From: Dactylosporangium sp. AC04546
Lineage (GTDB): Bacteria; Actinomycetota; Actinomycetes; Mycobacteriales; Micromonosporaceae
Direction: 5' to 3'
NCBI RefSeq assembly: GCF_022095675.1
Contig: NZ_JAHYSG010000038.1
Location: 33,802-97,801, forward strand
DNA length: 64,000 bases
A program made the translations under genes and the position numbers. Shown here in pieces: positions 1,206 to 7,743 of this stretch. The notes under the pieces are model-generated. The model was not told where the DNA came from. It worked only from the letters and a program-made list of their open reading frames with translations, and did no database searches. The first letter of the stretch is position 1. Each line of letters starts with the position of its first letter.

Positions 1206-2657
1206 CTACAGGCCGATGTTCGACTGCGGCCCGGAGTACGTGCGCAGCAGCGACGGCACGTCCGCCGCCGCGTCGAGCGTGTACGAGTAGAAGCTCGACG
1301 GGGTGAACGCCGAGCCGTTGGTCTGCTGCTTGCCCGTGCAGTTGACGACGATGCTGCCGCTCTGGCGCAGCTGCGCCGCGGACGTGTCGTTGTAGTACGG
1401 GTTCGCGACCTTCTCGAAGTAGCTGTTCTCCAGCACCATCTTCGTGGCGCCGCGCGACAGGTTGCCGTACGACGTGATGTTCTGCAGGTAGTTGTTGTAG
1501 AGGTGCGCGTAGGCGACGTTGTCGGTGCTCGGGTTGCGCTGGTTCGTGTCGTGGATCCAGTTGTGGTGGATCGTCATGCGCGCGGTCACGTTGTCGGTCC
1601 AGCCGATGCCGAACGCCTTGTTCGTGTAGCCGAGGTTGTTCCACGACACCGTCAGGTTCGTGGTGTCCTTGCGGCTGTCGATGAGCCCGTCGTTGGTGCG
1701 GCTGATCGTGTTGTGGTCGATCCAGACGTGGTCGGCGGTGTCCATCTGGATGCCGTCGTAGTCGAAGTCCTTGTCGTCCGGGTCGTCGGAGGCGACGAGC
1801 GTGTCGCCGATGGTGAGGTTGCGGATGATGACGTTGCGGGTGCCGGCGCTGAGGTTGAACCCGCCGTTGAAGATCCGGCCGCTCTTGCCGACGCCGATGA
1901 TGGTCTTGTCGGACGTCACCGGGATCTCGTAGCCGTACGGCGTGACGGTCACGGTGGCATTGACCCGGATCACGTACTTGCCACTCATCGCCGCGTATCG
2001 CTTGAGATCGGCGAAGTTCGACACGGTGACGGTGGTGCCGCCGGCGCCGCCGGTGGTCCCGGCCGCGAAGCCGTCGGCGGTGTCCGACCACGTGCGCCCC
2101 GAAGAGGTCGTCGGCGCGGTCCCCACCTGGTTGAACGCGAACTGCATCCGGGCGACGTCGGAACAGGTCTCCTGGACGATCGGGTTGTTCCCGGCCGTGG
2201 AGCCGTCCTTGTCGCTGACACACAGCCCGGTGGCGACGTTCTTGATCAGGTACTTCCCGGCCGCCGCGGAGGACGCGGTGAACGTCCACTGCTGGTTCGT
2301 CTTGGTGCCGTCGCCGCAGCCCCACTGCTGCAGCTGCAGCCCGGAGGTCGTGGCACTGTTGGGGACATCGACGCACCTCGTGCTGCCGACATTCACCAAG
2401 GTGTACTGCGAGGAGCCCGCGACCTTCCATTGCTGGCGAGTCGCGCCGGACGCGCACGCCGCCTGCTGCAGCAGCGCGCCGTTGTCGGCCGACCCACCGG
2501 CCACCTCGACACACTTCCCGCTGGCACCCGGCACGACCGTGTAGACACCACCGGCGACCGGGGTGGTGGCGGCCTCGGCGGAGGGCAGCATCACCACCGC
2601 GACCACACCGGCGGGCACCGCCACCGCGGCGGCGAGGAGCACTCTCTTCAGACGCAT
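1206..2657 (-). CDS. Secreted pectate lyase (PL1) with N-terminal ricin-type lectin domain
   Basis: 483 residues from ATG at 2657, preceded by GGGAG; an in-frame ATG 12 nt earlier overlaps that site and is less likely. A signal peptide (residues 1-26, ending SAEA) leads into a ricin B-type beta-trefoil domain (CBM13, about 28-170, with repeated Q-x-W-like motifs such as QLQQWGC and RQQWKVA). The C-terminal parallel beta-helix has PL1 landmarks: DHVWIDHNTISRTNDGLID, VSWNNL and AHLYNNYLQN. The enzyme should cleave polygalacturonate by calcium-dependent beta-elimination outside the cell, on substrate demethylated by the upstream pectinesterase. The two genes are 14 bp apart and probably translationally coupled. 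Confidence 0.92.
   Translation of the reverse strand: MRLKRVLLAAAVAVPAGVVAVVMLPSAEAATTPVAGGVYTVVPGASGKCVEVAGGSADNGALLQQAACASGATRQQWKVAGSSQYTLVNVGSTRCVDVPNSATTSGLQLQQWGCGDGTKTNQQWTFTASSAAAGKYLIKNVATGLCVSDKDGSTAGNNPIVQETCSDVARMQFAFNQVGTAPTTSSGRTWSDTADGFAAGTTGGAGGTTVTVSNFADLKRYAAMSGKYVIRVNATVTVTPYGYEIPVTSDKTIIGVGKSGRIFNGGFNLSAGTRNVIIRNLTIGDTLVASDDPDDKDFDYDGIQMDTADHVWIDHNTISRTNDGLIDSRKDTTNLTVSWNNLGYTNKAFGIGWTDNVTARMTIHHNWIHDTNQRNPSTDNVAYAHLYNNYLQNITSYGNLSRGATKMVLENSYFEKVANPYYNDTSAAQLRQSGSIVVNCTGKQQTNGSAFTPSSFYSYTLDAAADVPSLLRTYSGPQSNIGL
2150..2580 (-). repeat. Ricin-domain coding segment, copy 1 of 2 (copy 2 about 3600-4040)
   Basis: The stretches coding for the lectin domains of the pectate lyase and the pectinesterase are near-identical at protein level (for example VPGASGKCVEVAGGSADNGA in both) and visibly similar base for base. 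A recent in-cis domain duplication or ongoing gene conversion would explain this. Boundaries are approximate. Confidence 0.8.
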
Positions 2658-2671
2658 CGAAACTCCCATGG

Positions 2672-4135
2672 TTAGAGCGGGTCCCAGCCGTCCGTGCCGG
2701 CCAGGTACTTCTGCGGGGTGTAGTTGGCCGCCTGCGCGTCGCTGAGCTGGGGCCGGTTGCTGTTGGTCCCGGCGCCGGCGCCGGTGTTGCGGTACTCCAG
2801 GAAGCGCGCGTTCTTCCACGAGTTCGACGACATGTCGGTCCACGGCTGCGCGGTGCGGATCGTCGCGCTGAGGCTCGACTCGCGGTACAGCACCTGGGCG
2901 GCGGGACCCCACGGCCGGCCGAGCGTGGTCACGTTGTTCGCGGCGCCGGTGATCGTGCACTGGTAGAAGAGGATCCCGTAGGTCTTGCTCGCGTCGGTGT
3001 TGGCCGCGGTGATGGGGCCGCCGCTCGATCGCTTCTCATAGATCGTGCTCGACCGGAACACGACGGTCGCGCCGCCGAAGATGAAGTCGACGGTGCCCTC
3101 GACGTAGGAGTTCACGATGTACGCGCGGTAGTTGTTCACCAGCAGGGTGTCCTGGTTGCCGAGGAACCGCACGCCGTCGAAGACCGAGCGGTCGGCGTTG
3201 AGGTTCGCGGCCACGGCCTGGCTGCCCTCGCCGTAGTCGTTGGACATGGTGAGGTTCTTGGCGACGAAGTCGTGGCCGTTGACGAACACCGTCGCGCTGC
3301 CCGACGTGCCGTAGCCGCCGGCCGAGCTGTGGTTGTTGACGATGACCACGTTCGACGGCCCGGAACCGAGGCCCTGCAGCGTCACGTACGGCTTGTTCGA
3401 CGGGATCGTCACGATCTCCCGGTACGTGCCGGCCTTGATGGTGATGACCCGCCGCGTCGTGTTGTTCGCCGGTACCGCGTCGATCGCCGCCTGCACCGTG
3501 CGGTAGGTGCCCGAGCCGTCGGCGGCGACGGTCGGTGTGGCGCCGTTCGTGGTCGTCGGCGTGGTCGGGGTGGTGCCGCCGACCTGGTTGAACGCGAACT
3601 GCATGCGGGCGACGTCGGCGCAGGTCTCCTGCACGATCGGGTTGTTCCCGGCGGTCGAGCCGTCCTTGTCGCTCACGCACAGCCCGGTGGCGACGCTCTT
3701 GATCAGATACTTCCCCGAGGCGGCCGACGACGCCGTGAACGTCCACAGCTGGTTCGTCTTGGTCCCGTCACCGCAGCCCCACTGCTGCAGCTGCAGCCCG
3801 GAGGTCGCGGCACTGTTGGGGACATCGACGCACCTCGTACTGGAGATATTGACCAACGTGTACGGCGAGGAGCCCGCGACGCGAAACTGCTGGCGAGTCG
3901 CGCCGGAGGCACACGCCGCCTGCTGCAGCAGCGCGCCATTGTCGGCCGACCCACCGGCCACCTCGACACACTTCCCGCTGGCACCGGGCACGATCGTGTA
4001 GACGCCGCCGGCGACGGGCGTGGTGGCGGCCTCGGCGGAAGGCATCACCACCGCGACCACGGCGACGGTGGCGGGCACCGCGACGCCGAGGACGGCGAGC
4101 AGCAAATGTCGGCCGAGCCGACGCTGTCTGGGCAT
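2672..4135 (-). CDS. Secreted pectinesterase (CE8) with N-terminal ricin-type lectin domain
   Basis: 487 residues. A signal peptide (1-36) is followed by a ricin-type beta-trefoil almost identical to that of the downstream pectate lyase, a Thr/Pro linker (TTPTTPTTT) near residue 190, and a pectin methylesterase beta-helix. Catalytic signatures are present: GNQDTLL (first Asp), YVEGTVDFIFGGATVVF (nucleophile Asp) and LGRPWG (Arg). It removes methyl groups from homogalacturonan, making substrate for PL1 lyases. The start ATG has GAAAGGA upstream. It is first gene of the minus-strand operon and divergent, across 269 bp, from the sigma-lyase fusion gene. Confidence 0.93.
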   Translation of the reverse strand: MPRQRRLGRHLLLAVLGVAVPATVAVVAVVMPSAEAATTPVAGGVYTIVPGASGKCVEVAGGSADNGALLQQAACASGATRQQFRVAGSSPYTLVNISSTRCVDVPNSAATSGLQLQQWGCGDGTKTNQLWTFTASSAASGKYLIKSVATGLCVSDKDGSTAGNNPIVQETCADVARMQFAFNQVGGTTPTTPTTTNGATPTVAADGSGTYRTVQAAIDAVPANNTTRRVITIKAGTYREIVTIPSNKPYVTLQGLGSGPSNVVIVNNHSSAGGYGTSGSATVFVNGHDFVAKNLTMSNDYGEGSQAVAANLNADRSVFDGVRFLGNQDTLLVNNYRAYIVNSYVEGTVDFIFGGATVVFRSSTIYEKRSSGGPITAANTDASKTYGILFYQCTITGAANNVTTLGRPWGPAAQVLYRESSLSATIRTAQPWTDMSSNSWKNARFLEYRNTGAGAGTNSNRPQLSDAQAANYTPQKYLAGTDGWDPL

Positions 4136-4164
4136 GGAACGGTCCTTTCGTCACGCACAGCTAC

Positions 4165-4193
4165 GGTGCCGCCAGGGGCGGACCGGCGGCACC
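4165..4193. promoter_or_regulatory. Inverted repeat in leader of pectin operon
   Basis: GGTGCCGCC (4165-4173) and GGCGGCACC (4185-4193) form a perfect 9-bp inverted repeat with an 11-nt centre, 30 bp upstream of the pectinesterase start. It could be an operator or an RNA hairpin in the 5' leader. The rest of the 269-bp divergent region holds an AT-rich patch (4220-4233) and an AAGATCTT palindrome near 4256; no ECF promoter could be assigned by eye. Confidence 0.45.
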
Positions 4194-4404
4194 CTGGTAG
4201 ATGCATCGGCCGTGGGAGCGATAACAAAAATTCGCGGCCGTCCTGGAAGATCTTGGAAGGCAGCGGCGGCCGTCGCTGCTTTACAGCCCGGACGTGCCGT
4301 GCAACCATGCGGGGCGCGATTTCCGCCCGGCGGCCACGAGCAGGACGGCTGGTGACCGCCGGCGCGGAGCCGGGCCGCAGAGCACGTCCGGAGGAGACCA
4401 CACC

Positions 4405-6555
4405 GTGACGGAGAGTAGGACCGCGCCGAAGACCGCCGGGACCACGATCGAGGACCCGGTCGCGCTCGTGCGGGCCGCCCAGGCCGGCGACGACCGGGCG
4501 CTCGAGCGGCTCGCCGCCGCGTTCCTGCCGCTGGTGTACAACGTCATCGGCCGCGCGCTCGACGGGCACGCCGACGTGGACGACCTCGTCCAGGAGACGA
4601 TGATCCAATTCGTGCGGGGGCTGCCGGACCTGCGGGAGCCGGAGCGGTTCCGAGCCTGGTTGATCGCCATCGCGTACCGCCAGGTCCAGCTGCACCTGCG
4701 CAACCGGCAGCGCAACCAGCGCCGGCGGCAGGAGGGGCCGGTGGAGCTCGCCGACCCGCGCGGCGACTTCGTCGACCGGACGGTCACCGAGCTCGTCCTC
4801 ACCGGCCAGCGCCGCGAGCTGGCCGACGCCACCCGCTGGCTCGACGAGCGCGACCGGCACCTGCTCGCCCTGTGGTGGCAGGAGGCGTCGGGCACGCTCT
4901 CCCGGGCCGAGCTCGCCGCCGCCCTCGGGGTGGCGCCGGCCCACGCCGCCGTCCGGGTCCAGCGGATGCGCGCCCAGCTGGAGGTGGCCCGGTCGGTCGT
5001 GCGGGCACTGCGGGCCGAGCCGCGCTGTGCCGAGCTCGACGCCCTGGTGCGTCCCTGGCACGGCACCGCCGACGGCCTGTGGCGCAAGCGCCTGGCCCGG
5101 CACGTGCGCGGCTGCCCGGCCTGCGGCGCGCAGCGGACCGGCCTGGTCGCGCCGGAGCAGCTGCTGCGGGGCCTGGCGGCGGTACCGCTGCCGCTCGCGC
5201 TGGAAACACTGCGCGTCACGAGCCTCGGATCCGGCGCGGCCACCACACCGATCGCGGGCGCGGTCGCTGGCACGGGGCTGCTCGCGCACCTCCAGCACGC
5301 CGCCGGCACGAAGCTGGCCGCCGCCGGGGCCGTCGTGCTGATCGCCGGCGGCGGGATCGCGTTCGCGGTGTACGAGACGCCGCTCACCGACGGTGGCGGC
5401 CCGGTCGCCGCCCCGCCGCCCGCGGCCACCGCCACGGTGCCGCCGCCACCCACCGCGACCGGACCGTCCGGACCGGTGAGCGCCGCGCCGTCGGCGTCGG
5501 CGGCCGTCCCGCCGCCCGGCGGCACCGGTGTAACTTTCGCCGACATCTACGTCGCCCCCGGCGGGTCCGACACCGCCGACGGCACCGCGCAGCGGCCGTT
5601 CGCCACGCTCGGCAAGGCCGTCGCCGTGGTGCGGCCCGGCCAGACCATCGCGCTGCGCGGCGGGACGTACCGGCCGGCCGCCCCGGTGACGATCGGCACC
5701 AGCGGCGACGCGGAGCACCACATCACGCTCAGCGCCTACGGCGACGAGAAGCCCGTCATCGACGCCGCCGGCATCCCGTCGGACAAGTACCTGGTCACGC
5801 AGCGGGCCTCGTACTGGACTGTGCAGGGGATCGAGGTCCGCAACGCGCCCAGCCACGCCTGGGTGTGCTTCTCCTGCCGGTACAACACCTTCCAACGCAT
5901 GACGATGCGCGACAACGCGTCGTCCGGCCTCACCCTGCGTGATCCCGGCACCGTCGGCAACCAGGTCCTGAACAGCGACTTCCTCGGCCGCGCCGGGATC
6001 GGGCTGGGCATCAAGTTCGGCGACGGCGAGGGCAACGTCGTGCGCGGGTGCCGCATGAGCGGCGCGTCCGGCGACGGCGTCGACCTGGGCGAGTTCACCG
6101 GTGCGGTGACGCTGGAGTACAACTGGGCCTGGGGCAACGGCAAGAGCGGCTTCAACCTCGGCGGCGGCGACCCGCCGGCCGGCGCCGCGCACAAGCTGCG
6201 CCACAACGCCGCGTGGGACAACGCCCGCCACGGCTTCGCCGACGACGGCAACCCGGCCGCGCTGGAGCTGCAGAACAACACGGCGTTCCGCAACCGCGGC
6301 AACGGCTTCAACATGACCACCGCGGCGGCCGTCCTGCGCAGCAACGTCGCCGTCGGCAACGCCGCCCCCACCAGCACCGGCGCCGGGGTGCGCAGCAGCC
6401 GCAACACGTGGGACGAGGGCAGCTGGGACGCGACGATGTTCTCCTCGACCGACCCGGCCGTCGCGCAGGGCCCGCGCCGCGCCGACGGGACGATGACACC
6501 GACCGACTTCCTGCGCACCGGCAACGGCATGGGTGCGTCGATGTCGGGCGGCTAG
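4405..6555 (+). CDS. ECF sigma factor - zinc anti-sigma motif - TM - PL9-like beta-helix fusion
   Basis: 716 residues from GTG 4405 (GGAGGAGA upstream). Residues about 17-106 are sigma region 2 (DDLVQETMIQFV; FRAWLIAIAYRQV) and 136-195 region 4 (LGVAPAHAAVRVQRMRAQL). Then comes H233-x3-C237-x2-C240, the zinc anti-sigma (ZAS) signature; a TM helix at about 303-323; a Pro/Ala linker to 375; and a right-handed beta-helix (377-716) of PL9 type (KFGDGEGNVVRGCRMSGASG; GNGKSGFNLGGG). Known PL9 enzymes carry the catalytic Lys in a GFKLGG motif and calcium ligands in SDDGWDL; here these read GFNLGG (N584) and SGDGVDL, so the domain is probably a binding receptor, not an enzyme. Inferred role: a membrane-bound pectin sensor that controls the divergent pectinase operon. 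Confidence 0.88.
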   Translation: MTESRTAPKTAGTTIEDPVALVRAAQAGDDRALERLAAAFLPLVYNVIGRALDGHADVDDLVQETMIQFVRGLPDLREPERFRAWLIAIAYRQVQLHLRNRQRNQRRRQEGPVELADPRGDFVDRTVTELVLTGQRRELADATRWLDERDRHLLALWWQEASGTLSRAELAAALGVAPAHAAVRVQRMRAQLEVARSVVRALRAEPRCAELDALVRPWHGTADGLWRKRLARHVRGCPACGAQRTGLVAPEQLLRGLAAVPLPLALETLRVTSLGSGAATTPIAGAVAGTGLLAHLQHAAGTKLAAAGAVVLIAGGGIAFAVYETPLTDGGGPVAAPPPAATATVPPPPTATGPSGPVSAAPSASAAVPPPGGTGVTFADIYVAPGGSDTADGTAQRPFATLGKAVAVVRPGQTIALRGGTYRPAAPVTIGTSGDAEHHITLSAYGDEKPVIDAAGIPSDKYLVTQRASYWTVQGIEVRNAPSHAWVCFSCRYNTFQRMTMRDNASSGLTLRDPGTVGNQVLNSDFLGRAGIGLGIKFGDGEGNVVRGCRMSGASGDGVDLGEFTGAVTLEYNWAWGNGKSGFNLGGGDPPAGAAHKLRHNAAWDNARHGFADDGNPAALELQNNTAFRNRGNGFNMTTAAAVLRSNVAVGNAAPTSTGAGVRSSRNTWDEGSWDATMFSSTDPAVAQGPRRADGTMTPTDFLRTGNGMGASMSGG

Positions 6556-6732: not shown

Positions 6733-7743
6733 ATGTCTCGTGCGCGGCTGTTCATGGCCCTCACCGCCGTCGTGGTCGCGGTCCTGGGTCTGGCCACGCT
6801 GGTCTGGGCCACGCTCGCGGCCGTCCGCCCGGCCCGCGTCGAGCCGTACCTGGCGGTCGCCACCGAGGCGAACGCCCTCGTCCTGACGGTGCCCGCGGTG
6901 CTGTTCGGCTGCGCGCTGCTCGTGCTGGCCGCGCTGGTCCCGACCGGCCGCCCCGCCGCGCGCAGCGCGCTGGTGTGGGTGGCGAGCACCGGGACCGCCC
7001 TCGTGCTCTGGCTGTGCCTCGTCCACTACACGGCGGTGCACCCCACGGGGTACGACGTATGGCTCGTGCGCCCGTGGATCGGCGCCGTCGCCACGCCGGT
7101 GACCCTGCTCGCGCTGGTCGCCACGGCGGTGTGCGCCCGCCTCCCGGTCACGCGGCGGGCGCCGGCCGCTCCGGTGGGCGACACGACGGCCACAGTGGCA
7201 CCGGCGCCGCTGCGGCGCGCGGTGGGGTGGATCGTGGCCGGCAGCGTGGCCGGCATCGGCGCGTTCGCGCTGGCGGTGGCCCTCGACAGCACGGTCACGG
7301 TCGACCCGCTCTACGTGATGATGTACGTGGTCATCGGCGGCGCCCCGCTGCTCGCCGGCGCGGTGTGGGCGTCGGTCACCGCCGGCCTCGCCCGCTCCGG
7401 CCGGCTCATGTTCGCCCACCTGGCCCGGGCCGGCGCCGCGATCCTGCTTGCCGGCCTGTGGTTCGCCCTCGTCCAGGACGCGGAGGCCGCCGTCATCGCC
7501 GTGGGGCGCTACGCGGACGCCCGCCCGATCCCGCTGGCCGTGGGCGTGGGCCTGCTCCTGGCCGGCGCGGCCGCGATCGCCGCGACCGTCACCGGCCTGG
7601 CCGGGCTCGCCGATCCGCGGACCGAGCGGTACGTCCGCGACACCGAGGCCCGCGAGAACAACCCCTGGGCGGCATGGGAGCACCGGCCTGCACCGTCGCC
7701 GCTCACCGTCGTGGTCGCCGAGGAGTCGACCTGGACGTCCTAG
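6733..7743 (+). CDS. Polytopic membrane protein of unknown function
   Basis: 336 residues with about eight hydrophobic segments (roughly at 7-30, 50-68, 80-100, 112-132, 158-180, 192-215, 232-250 and 262-285), followed by a hydrophilic cytoplasmic tail (DPRTERYVRDTEARENNPWA) that ends in TWTS. No transporter or enzyme motif was recognised. ATG 6733 has no Shine-Dalgarno site, but a TACCGT hexamer lies 8 bases before it, which would give a leaderless transcript. The gene ends at a strong bidirectional hairpin shared with the convergent amidase. Confidence 0.65.
   Translation: MSRARLFMALTAVVVAVLGLATLVWATLAAVRPARVEPYLAVATEANALVLTVPAVLFGCALLVLAALVPTGRPAARSALVWVASTGTALVLWLCLVHYTAVHPTGYDVWLVRPWIGAVATPVTLLALVATAVCARLPVTRRAPAAPVGDTTATVAPAPLRRAVGWIVAGSVAGIGAFALAVALDSTVTVDPLYVMMYVVIGGAPLLAGAVWASVTAGLARSGRLMFAHLARAGAAILLAGLWFALVQDAEAAVIAVGRYADARPIPLAVGVGLLLAGAAAIAATVTGLAGLADPRTERYVRDTEARENNPWAAWEHRPAPSPLTVVVAEESTWTS

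What the first reader, a model, noticed from the sequence alone, without database searches (positions are those of the whole stretch)
4136..6555. A one-polypeptide pectin sensor: ECF sigma + ZAS zinc motif + TM + PL9-like beta-helix
The sequence shows, in one 716-residue frame, sigma regions 2 and 4, an Hx3Cx2C zinc anti-sigma motif, a TM helix, a Pro/Ala linker and an extracellular PL9-like beta-helix. The gene is divergent from a pectinesterase-pectate lyase operon. Sigma, anti-sigma and receptor are normally separate proteins. ECF groups with membrane-bound C-terminal carbohydrate-binding extensions have been described in Actinobacteria (recalled, ECF52/53-like); a lyase-type receptor next to its own pectinase operon would make a complete substrate-induced circuit. 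Release of the sigma part by proteolysis is an inference.
Basis: partly seen in the sequence, partly recalled or inferred. Interest (0 to 1): 0.92.

Follow-up and report, generated by a model that had tools for sequence, protein, structure and literature searches.

The report
One-protein pectin sensor and sigma switch
A soil actinobacterium encodes, in one membrane protein, a gene switch fused to a pectin-lyase-like outer domain that has lost its catalytic lysine, and comparison across many relatives suggests that it turns on pectin-digesting genes through a promoter sequence that can now be named and tested.

Summary
In detail: window 4405-6552 encodes 716 uninterrupted residues (ECF sigma domain, Hx3Cx2C module, one hydrophobic TM-like segment, Pro/Ala linker, PL9-like beta-helix), divergent from a CE8-PL1 pectinase operon. 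New here: (1) 51 of 54 related named loci are sigma-PL9 fusions; 41 of 51 have a pectinase gene within 4.5 kb, against 0 of 40 loci of sister ECF genes with other outer domains (CE8/PL1/PL9 seeds). (2) The fused beta-helix is mostly a pseudoenzyme: Pel9A's catalytic lysine is lost in 48 of 51 (Asn in the window); 16 of 16 readable unfused PL9 domains keep all five active-site residues. (3) A bipartite promoter-like element, TGTTRTC-N14/15-GCATCTAC, faces the pectinases. In 300 family genomes it occurs 60 times, against 2 for the reversed pattern. Away from receptor loci it faces pectin or arabinan genes in 33 of 33 cases in receptor-bearing genomes, and in 0 of 2 where no receptor was detected. 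The layout is that described for ECF52/53: a new variant of a known kind. Pectin binding, proteolysis and promoter use are inferred, not shown; some receptor genomes lack an exact element.

The parts
4405..6555 (+). receptor-sigma gene, 716 aa, GTG start
4450..4986 (+). ECF sigma domain (about residues 16-194)
   Evidence: Sigma70_r2, TIGR02937, model
5014..5178 (+). ZAS-type anti-sigma module (about residues 204-258); Hx3Cx2C at 5101-5124
   Evidence: H233, C237, C240 invariant in 45 receptors; helices in model
5308..5376 (+). single transmembrane segment (about residues 302-324)
   Evidence: hydropathy; not confidently modelled
5377..5538 (+). Pro/Ala-rich linker
   Evidence: sequence; pLDDT < 50 to residue 371
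5539..6552 (+). extracellular PL9-like beta-helix; Pel9A K273 replaced by Asn, D209 by Ile, D233 by Gly; D234 and D237 kept
4196..4231 (-). promoter-like element facing the pectinase operon: -35 box ATTTTTGTTATC (4220-4231), 15-base spacer, -10 box GCATCTACC (4196-4204)
2672..4135 (-). pectinesterase CE8 with ricin-type lectin domain, first gene of the divergent operon
   Evidence: Pfam Pectinesterase E 1.4e-55
1206..2669 (-). pectate lyase PL1 with ricin-type lectin domain, second gene (ATG at 2669 or 2657)
   Evidence: Pfam Pectate_lyase_4 E 3.8e-18

Best explanation
The gene encodes a one-polypeptide pectin receptor and sigma factor. The outer, in this protein non-catalytic-looking, PL9-like beta-helix binds pectate or oligogalacturonide. 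The ZAS module holds the fused sigma domain inactive at the membrane. Ligand binding leads to release or unmasking of the sigma domain, probably by regulated proteolysis near the TM segment. The sigma domain then directs RNA polymerase to TGTTRTC-N14/15-GCATCTAC promoters in front of pectin-degrading genes: the divergent CE8-PL1 operon and, in this genome, probably also a PL11 rhamnogalacturonan lyase on contig C21. Shown by computation: the architecture, its conservation, the lost active-site residues, the genetic linkage, the element and its genome-wide company. Inferred: the ligand, inhibition by the ZAS module, proteolysis, and that this sigma reads this element.
For: Architecture. Linkage: CE8 or PL1 near the receptor in 38 of 51 fused named loci, plus an unfused PL9 (L118, L122) or a PL3-PL9 pair (L148) in 3 more, so 41 of 51; 0 of 40 sister-ECF loci and 0 of 11 unfused-PL9 loci have CE8 or PL1 (Fisher for 38/51 vs 0/40, 8e-15). 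Gene order varies. Lost catalysis; tree. Element: it faces an enzyme gene in 34 of 51 loci by script, 35 with L151, whose gap is 1146 bases; in the 8 fused loci whose operon is not divergent it faces the operon in 6 (L100, L102, L107, L117, L130, L151). 0 hits above score 20 in 0.9 Mb of triplet-shuffled sequence. Exact pattern in 300 family genomes: 60 matches in 39 genomes against 2 for the reversed pattern. Of 73 genomes searched for both: together 31, receptor only 6, element only 3, neither 33 (Fisher 2.7e-11). 33 of 33 off-locus sites in receptor-bearing genomes face pectin or arabinan genes. In the window's genome the only perfect copy faces CE8-PL1 and the only one-mismatch copy (N15 form) faces PL11 with the same lectin domain. 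Four sister ECF genes carry a related element with -10 CGTCTCC or GGTCTCC reading towards themselves.
Against: No binding, expression or proteolysis data. 10 of 51 receptors have no pectinase nearby; 8 of them are an Actinoplanes group at a dinB-like locus. L131 and L132 (operon not divergent) have no element facing it; L125 has CE8-PL1 but no element above 20; L135's only element faces the receptor; L105, L109, L110, L119 and L121 keep the element with no pectinase there. Receptor-bearing genomes without an exact element: 6 of 37, 3 of 8 (G005, G015, G022), and 7 of 18 named genomes, whose elements differ at a few bases or were not seen. The element is not seen facing the receptor gene, so typical ECF autoregulation is absent. 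Two sister-ECF loci (L077, L095) carry like elements reading away from the sigma gene. Counts are not corrected for kinship, and the element was first derived upstream of receptor genes. K273 is kept in Catellatospora-type receptors.
Confidence: 0.8

Rival explanations
1. The fused beta-helix is a membrane-anchored working pectate lyase that happens to share a chain with a sigma factor; its catalysis makes the signal or is its main role.
For: L047, L123, L124 and L127 (and L046, the same gene as L123) keep all five active-site residues; fold matches Pel9A.
Against: 48 of 51 fused named loci lost K273, the window too (N), and the window also lost D209 and D233, whereas 16 of 16 readable unfused domains keep all five.
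Confidence: 0.08
2. The bipartite element is read by another factor (a LacI-type repressor, or a different sigma), and the receptor acts elsewhere.
For: The window's -35 box overlaps TGGGAGCGATAACA, which looks like a LacI-family operator (recalled, not tested). LacI-family proteins are among the neighbours of some AbfB-type sister ECF genes (4 of 36 scanned).
Against: The GGGAGCG part is absent in many loci (present in 27 of 52 upstream regions) while both boxes and their spacing stay. Element and receptor go together in the 73 genomes searched for both. Four sister ECF genes carry a like element reading towards themselves.
Confidence: 0.12
3. The receptor reports something other than pectin, such as cell-wall stress, and the pectinase link is coincidence.
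For: 10 of 51 loci have no pectinase nearby. Sister ECF genes with a GH catalytic-core domain show no carbohydrate hydrolase or lyase among the 25 listed families of 29 neighbours scanned.
Against: 41 of 51 loci linked, in several gene orders; 33 of 33 off-locus elements in receptor-bearing genomes face pectin or arabinan genes.
Confidence: 0.04

Closest known systems
ECF52 (SCO4117 of Streptomyces coelicolor) and ECF53 sigma factors
   Same: One polypeptide with ECF sigma, zinc-finger anti-sigma part and TM helix or helices; for SCO4117 also a proline-rich stretch and an outer carbohydrate-binding domain; proteolytic activation proposed (passages of PMC5826349, PMC8999054, PMC10766802)
   Different: Outer domain here is a PL9-like, mostly non-catalytic beta-helix with a narrow pectin-gene company; SCO4117 is described as pleiotropic, its binding motif as different in form, and it is suggested to autoregulate (passages).
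SigI/RsgI systems of Clostridium thermocellum
   Same: Sigma activity under an outer polysaccharide sensor; sensors include CBM42, PA14 (pectin) and GH10; the sigmaI3 regulon is mainly pectin-degrading (passages of PMC12203970 and PMC6056542; rgl11A is named there among tested promoters)
   Different: There sigma and anti-sigma are two proteins and sigmaI is not an ECF factor; here all is one chain and the sensor is PL9-like
IutY (ECF243) of Pseudomonas putida
   Same: Anti-sigma part fused to the sigma factor; activated by regulated proteolysis through Prc and RseP (passage of PMC8999054)
   Different: Part of an iron-starvation system that responds to the siderophore aerobactin; no carbohydrate domain mentioned in that passage
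PL9 pectate lyases (Pel9A, 1ru4)
   Same: Fold and sequence of the outer domain
   Different: Catalytic lysine and two of four calcium ligands replaced in the window protein

Membership tests
ECF sigma factor | sigma region 2 and ECF-wide profile | tested here: met
   Sigma70_r2 49.7 bits vs cut-off 24; TIGR02937 70.7 vs 42.9
ECF sigma factor | region 4 by its own Pfam profile | tested here: inconclusive
   no Pfam region-4 hit; sub-threshold HTH at 146-189; TIGR02937 spans to 194; helices in model
ZAS-type anti-sigma module | Hx3Cx2C after the sigma domain, before the TM | tested here: met
   H233/C237/C240 invariant in 45 aligned receptors; no Pfam zinc-finger family was hit
ZAS-type anti-sigma module | zinc binding and inhibition of sigma | not testable with these tools
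   needs biochemistry
ECF52/ECF53-type one-polypeptide sigma factor | sigma + zinc finger + TM + outer carbohydrate-related domain in one chain | tested here: met
   definition from passages
ECF52/ECF53-type one-polypeptide sigma factor | membership by ECF group HMM or phylogeny with named ECF52/53 members | not tested
   group HMMs and the SCO4117 and WP_030276194.1 sequences were not at hand; three defining papers were not held
PL9 pectate lyase | right-handed beta-helix related to Pel9A | tested here: met
   E 2.4e-21; TM-score 0.71 on target
PL9 pectate lyase | catalytic Lys273 and calcium ligands D209, D233, D234, D237 (positions recalled; a passage of PMC6796002 confirms a lysine base) | tested here: not met
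   window has N, I, G, D, D: not filed as a PL9 enzyme

The most novel reading that the evidence does not exclude
A pectate lyase was captured once onto a membrane sigma factor, lost its catalysis, and became the dedicated receptor of a pectin regulon in several actinobacterial genera. Receptor, anti-sigma and sigma in one chain and one stringent promoter form a complete, portable substrate-to-gene circuit. It belongs to a wider family in which the same sigma/ZAS/TM core carries exchangeable outer domains (AbfB, ricin-type, GH core, CAP, DUF4185), an independent one-chain counterpart of SigI/RsgI.
Probability: 0.65. Interest if true: 0.82.

Novelty: new variant of a known kind. Interest (0 to 1): 0.74.

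Why it matters
For membrane-bound one-polypeptide ECF factors the passages seen here describe signal and target promoter as predicted or unsettled. Here all three parts of a circuit can be named and tested: a pectate-lyase-derived receptor, a 29-30-base promoter element and a short list of pectin genes. If true it is a clear case of an enzyme turned into a receptor, a possible one-gene pectin biosensor, and a model for how sigma factors acquire new inputs by swapping outer domains.

Tried and rejected
Considered and dropped: (a) that the fusion is a frameshift or misassembly: rejected by intact homologues in many genomes. (b) That the outer domain is a working lyase: see rival 1. (c) That the element is the receptor's own promoter: rejected, since in 6 of the 8 fused loci with a non-divergent operon a copy faces that operon (L100, L102, L107, L117, L130, L151; four of these copies score only 21-27, not far above the cut-off of 20; not so in L131 and L132), and only L135 and, weakly, L132 have a copy facing the receptor. 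L100 and L102 also keep a copy upstream of the receptor that faces away from it. (d) That every outer-domain type predicts its neighbours: AbfB-type sister genes (17 loci sorted by eye, Pfam run on L063 only) sit beside GH62, GH43, GH10, GH54 and GH127 genes (36 of 58 listed neighbours scanned; no matched control), but GH-core-type ones (11 loci sorted by eye, Pfam run on L059 only) do not (29 of 33 listed neighbours scanned: MFS, luciferase-like, Tex). (e) AbfB-type loci do not carry the same element facing their neighbours: a regular-expression scan gave 2 hits in 17 loci, nearly alike in sequence, whose surroundings I did not examine. (f) A looser form of the element (12 fixed bases) gave 11 hits in 9 genomes against 7 for the reversed pattern; four of these (L154, L155, L156, L163, of which L156 is in the window's genome) face no seed gene and are taken as chance; the two-mismatch search in the window's genome gave 5 hits against 7 reversed. 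Only exact or one-mismatch matches to the full pattern are used.

Rows dropped or special: L112 (receptor at contig edge, sigma not readable), L150 and L152 (unfused) are not in the 51. L149 is counted as fused but its reading frame is split, so it is out of the tree and of A3. L127 is identical to L124 over its whole length and stays in the counts, so 51 loci are 50 different ones. L058, a fragment, could not be read at the active site, so the unfused count is 16 readable of 17. The script counts 42 of 51 loci with an enzyme nearby because it takes a piece of L149's own split receptor for one; I report 41. Sister-ECF loci differ in length (5.6-19 kb), some cut by contig ends. In the genome count G269 stands as 'no receptor', as one search gave it, although one search finds one there (L134); its one off-locus site (L183) is counted with receptor-bearing genomes, as is that of G259 (L199), whose receptor match covers residues 2-345 only. 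Of the 300 genomes, the receptor was sought in these 73 and in the 37 family genomes (8 with receptor, 5 of these with element; 29 without receptor, none with element); the other genomes were not searched for it.

Literature: eight search listings and passages of six papers (PMC8999054, PMC5826349, PMC10766802, PMC6796002, PMC6056542, PMC12203970). Three key papers (Huang 2015, Casas-Pastor 2021, Pinto 2019) were not held. In those eight listings I saw no title or abstract start about a sigma factor fused to a pectate-lyase domain; I did not read the listed papers in full and most subscription papers are not covered, so this is no proof of absence.
Full report
What is there. Window 4405-6555 is one intact gene of 716 codons plus stop. 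Its product reads, in order: ECF sigma domain (Sigma70_r2 37-103; TIGR02937 32-194), a helical module with Hx3Cx2C (H233, C237, C240), one hydrophobic segment at about 302-324, a Pro/Ala-rich linker, and a beta-helix matching pectate lyase Pel9A (1ru4, E 2.4e-21). An AlphaFold model from a 45-sequence alignment (A3) has pLDDT above 90 for most of the sigma/ZAS part and of the beta-helix and below 50 for 258-371; pTM is 0.54, so the domains' mutual placing is unknown. Foldseek's best solved match is 1ru4, then a rhamnogalacturonan lyase; sigmaE and AlgU chains appear lower for the N-terminal part. Divergent on the minus strand lie a pectinesterase (2672-4135) and a pectate lyase (1206 to about 2669), both with ricin-type (CBM13-like) lectin domains. 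The host is probably a Dactylosporangium: the best named match is D. sucinum, 90% in the outer domain.

Who else has it. In 61 genomes (own and 60 relatives), nine genes in eight genomes match over the full length. A scan of genome contigs with the outer-domain alignment gave 54 loci: 51 are fused to the sigma domain, L150 and L152 are not, and L112 is cut by the contig end. They come from Dactylosporangium, Rugosimonospora, Actinoplanes and kin, Micromonospora, Virgisporangium, Catellatospora, Streptomyces, Kitasatospora, Kineosporia, Parafrankia and one Actinomycetales MAG. L124 and L127 are identical. The scan used only two peptide patterns, so it is not a full census.

Linkage. CE8 or PL1 genes lie near the receptor in 38 of 51 fused loci; L118 and L122 have an unfused PL9 and L148 a PL3-PL9 pair instead, so 41 of 51 within 4.5 kb (less L149). 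The order varies: divergent in most, downstream on the same strand in L100, L102, L130, L131 and L151, convergent in L107 and L132, upstream on the same strand in L117. Controls: none of 40 loci of sister ECF genes with other outer domains, and none of 11 loci around unfused PL9 genes, has CE8 or PL1 by the same seeds. Of the ten exceptions, eight are an Actinoplanes group beside a dinB-like polymerase, where a sister (L137) has CE8; identical element sequences show that the genomes of L119 and L121 (G035, G275) have a CE8-PL1 operon behind an element elsewhere (L204, L214) and that of L110 (G279) a PL11 (L196). L138 is near a contig end and its element points that way; L142 is from a MAG.

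Lost catalysis. Pel9A uses a lysine base (passage of PMC6796002); the residue numbers K273 and calcium ligands D209, D233, D234, D237 are recalled and fit the 1ru4 chain. K273 is replaced in 48 of 51 fused named loci (N, T, S, A, V, H, L or R); L123, L124 and L127 keep it, as does L047 of the first set. All 14 unfused PL9 domains read, and the unfused L150 and L152, keep all five; one more, the fragment L058, could not be read. In a tree of 68 rows the fused receptors form one clade (100/96); the lysine is kept in L047, L123 and L124 and lost on the branch to 47 receptors (98/96); L142 (V) groups with the keepers (93/69), which would make a second loss, but its branch is long and the programme warns of long branches. 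A Cx2C pair (C488, C491 in the window) is invariant in the 45 aligned receptors; five unfused PL9s have it too.

The promoter-like element. Conserved words upstream of the receptor resolve into a bipartite element that, read towards the pectinase operon, is TTTCTGTTRTC-N14/15-GCATCTACC. In the window it is at 4196-4231 on the minus strand, 61 bases before the CE8 start codon. A two-box matrix built from 35 such sites finds it above score 20 in 44 of 51 fused loci and nowhere in 0.9 Mb of shuffled sequence. It faces an enzyme gene in 34 of 51 by a fixed rule, and in L151 with a slightly longer gap. In the 8 loci with a non-divergent operon, 6 have a copy facing the operon (L100 21.2, L102 27.0, L107 22.8, L117 34.2, L130 22.5, L151 34.6) and 2 (L131, L132) do not. 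This argues for its direction. Against a simple picture: L105, L109, L110, L119 and L121 keep the element with no pectinase there; L100 and L102 keep a second copy upstream of the receptor; L125 has the operon without an element above 20; L135's copy faces the receptor. Sister ECF loci show hits in 6 of 40: four read towards their own sigma gene with -10 CGTCTCC or GGTCTCC (L072, L085, L091, L097), two (L077, L095) read away from it; unfused-PL9 loci show none of 11.

Genome-wide company. The window's genome has one perfect copy, at this promoter, and one with a single mismatch, on contig C21, which faces a PL11 rhamnogalacturonan lyase with the same lectin domain. Looser searches are at chance level. 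In 18 named receptor-bearing genomes the exact pattern gave 17 matches in 11 genomes and none in 7; the reversed pattern none. In 300 family genomes it occurs 60 times in 39 genomes; the reversed pattern twice. 25 of the 60 are at receptor loci. The other 35 were all examined: 33 lie in receptor-bearing genomes and all 33 face pectin or arabinan genes on the same strand: 15 CE8-PL1 operons, one operon of a CBM2 gene and CE8 (the first gene resembles the PL1-like gene of L117, which is below Pfam's cut-off), ten PL11 (L183 by BLAST likeness, 82%), one CE8, two PL1, one PL9, two GH43 and one GH54. The two in genomes where no receptor was detected (L193, L215) face none of the seed families. For 73 genomes searched for both, receptor and element occur together in 31, receptor alone in 6, element alone in 3, neither in 33 (Fisher 2.7e-11); one of the three (G269) does hold a receptor. 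In the 37 family genomes the figures are 5, 3, 0 and 29. These counts are not corrected for kinship.

How it probably works. Shown by comparison: architecture, lost active-site residues, linkage, element and its company. Inferred: that the beta-helix binds galacturonan; that the ZAS module silences the fused sigma domain; that binding triggers release, most simply by regulated intramembrane proteolysis as described for IutY and RsgI and expected or proposed for ECF52/53 (passages); that the freed sigma domain reads the element. An alternative to release is a conformational change with the sigma domain still at the membrane.

Place among known things. The layout is that described for ECF52/53 (passages); a review notes that some of these have predicted glycosyl hydrolase and carbohydrate-binding domains, not yet validated (PMC10766802 passage). 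Membership in a numbered ECF group was not tested. In function the nearest counterpart is SigI/RsgI of clostridia, with varied outer sensors, among them CBM42, GH10 and a pectin-recognising PA14, and a mainly pectin-degrading sigmaI3 regulon (passages). One representative each of the sister genes here shows AbfB, ricin-type, GH catalytic core, CAP and DUF4185 outer domains, and two (L074, L095) no Pfam family. The AbfB type sits beside arabinofuranosidase and xylanase families; the GH-core type shows none in the families listed. Hence: a new variant of a known kind, with an unusually complete and testable circuit.

Noticed in passing
window 4165-4193: Perfect inverted repeat GGTGCCGCC-N11-GGCGGCACC in the predicted leader of the CE8-PL1 mRNA, just after the -10 box; by eye a like stretch is present in several Actinoplanes-type loci. 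It may stabilise or attenuate the transcript.
   Followed up: no
window 4213-4226: TGGGAGCGATAACA overlaps the -35 box and looks like a LacI-family operator (recalled resemblance); GGGAGCG occurs in 27 of 52 upstream regions, so a second, repressing input is possible.
   Followed up: partly
L105, L109, L110, L111, L114, L119, L121, L137, L149: In one Actinoplanes group the receptor sits beside a dinB-like polymerase gene, without CE8 or PL1 except in L137; in at least the genomes of L119 and L121 a CE8-PL1 operon with the element lies elsewhere.
   Followed up: partly
L060-L093 (17 AbfB-type sister genes): ECF-ZAS-TM-AbfB proteins sit beside GH62, GH43, GH10, GH54 and GH127 genes: possibly arabinofuranose-sensing one-polypeptide sigma factors.
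   Followed up: partly
L059, L062, L064, L067, L072, L076, L080, L086, L091, L092, L096: Sister ECF genes end in a glycosyl hydrolase catalytic-core domain (Pfam run on L059 only, the rest by likeness); no carbohydrate enzyme among the listed families of their scanned neighbours.
   Followed up: partly
G000: The genome shows 144 sigma region 2 matches, many in long open frames; its contamination estimate is 11.5%.
   Followed up: no
L149 8714-11207: The receptor of Actinoplanes liguriensis appears split over two reading frames within the beta-helix; described only.
   Followed up: no
window 6733-7743: A 336-aa protein without a confident Pfam family lies downstream of the receptor and has a homologue at the same place in D. 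sucinum.
   Followed up: no
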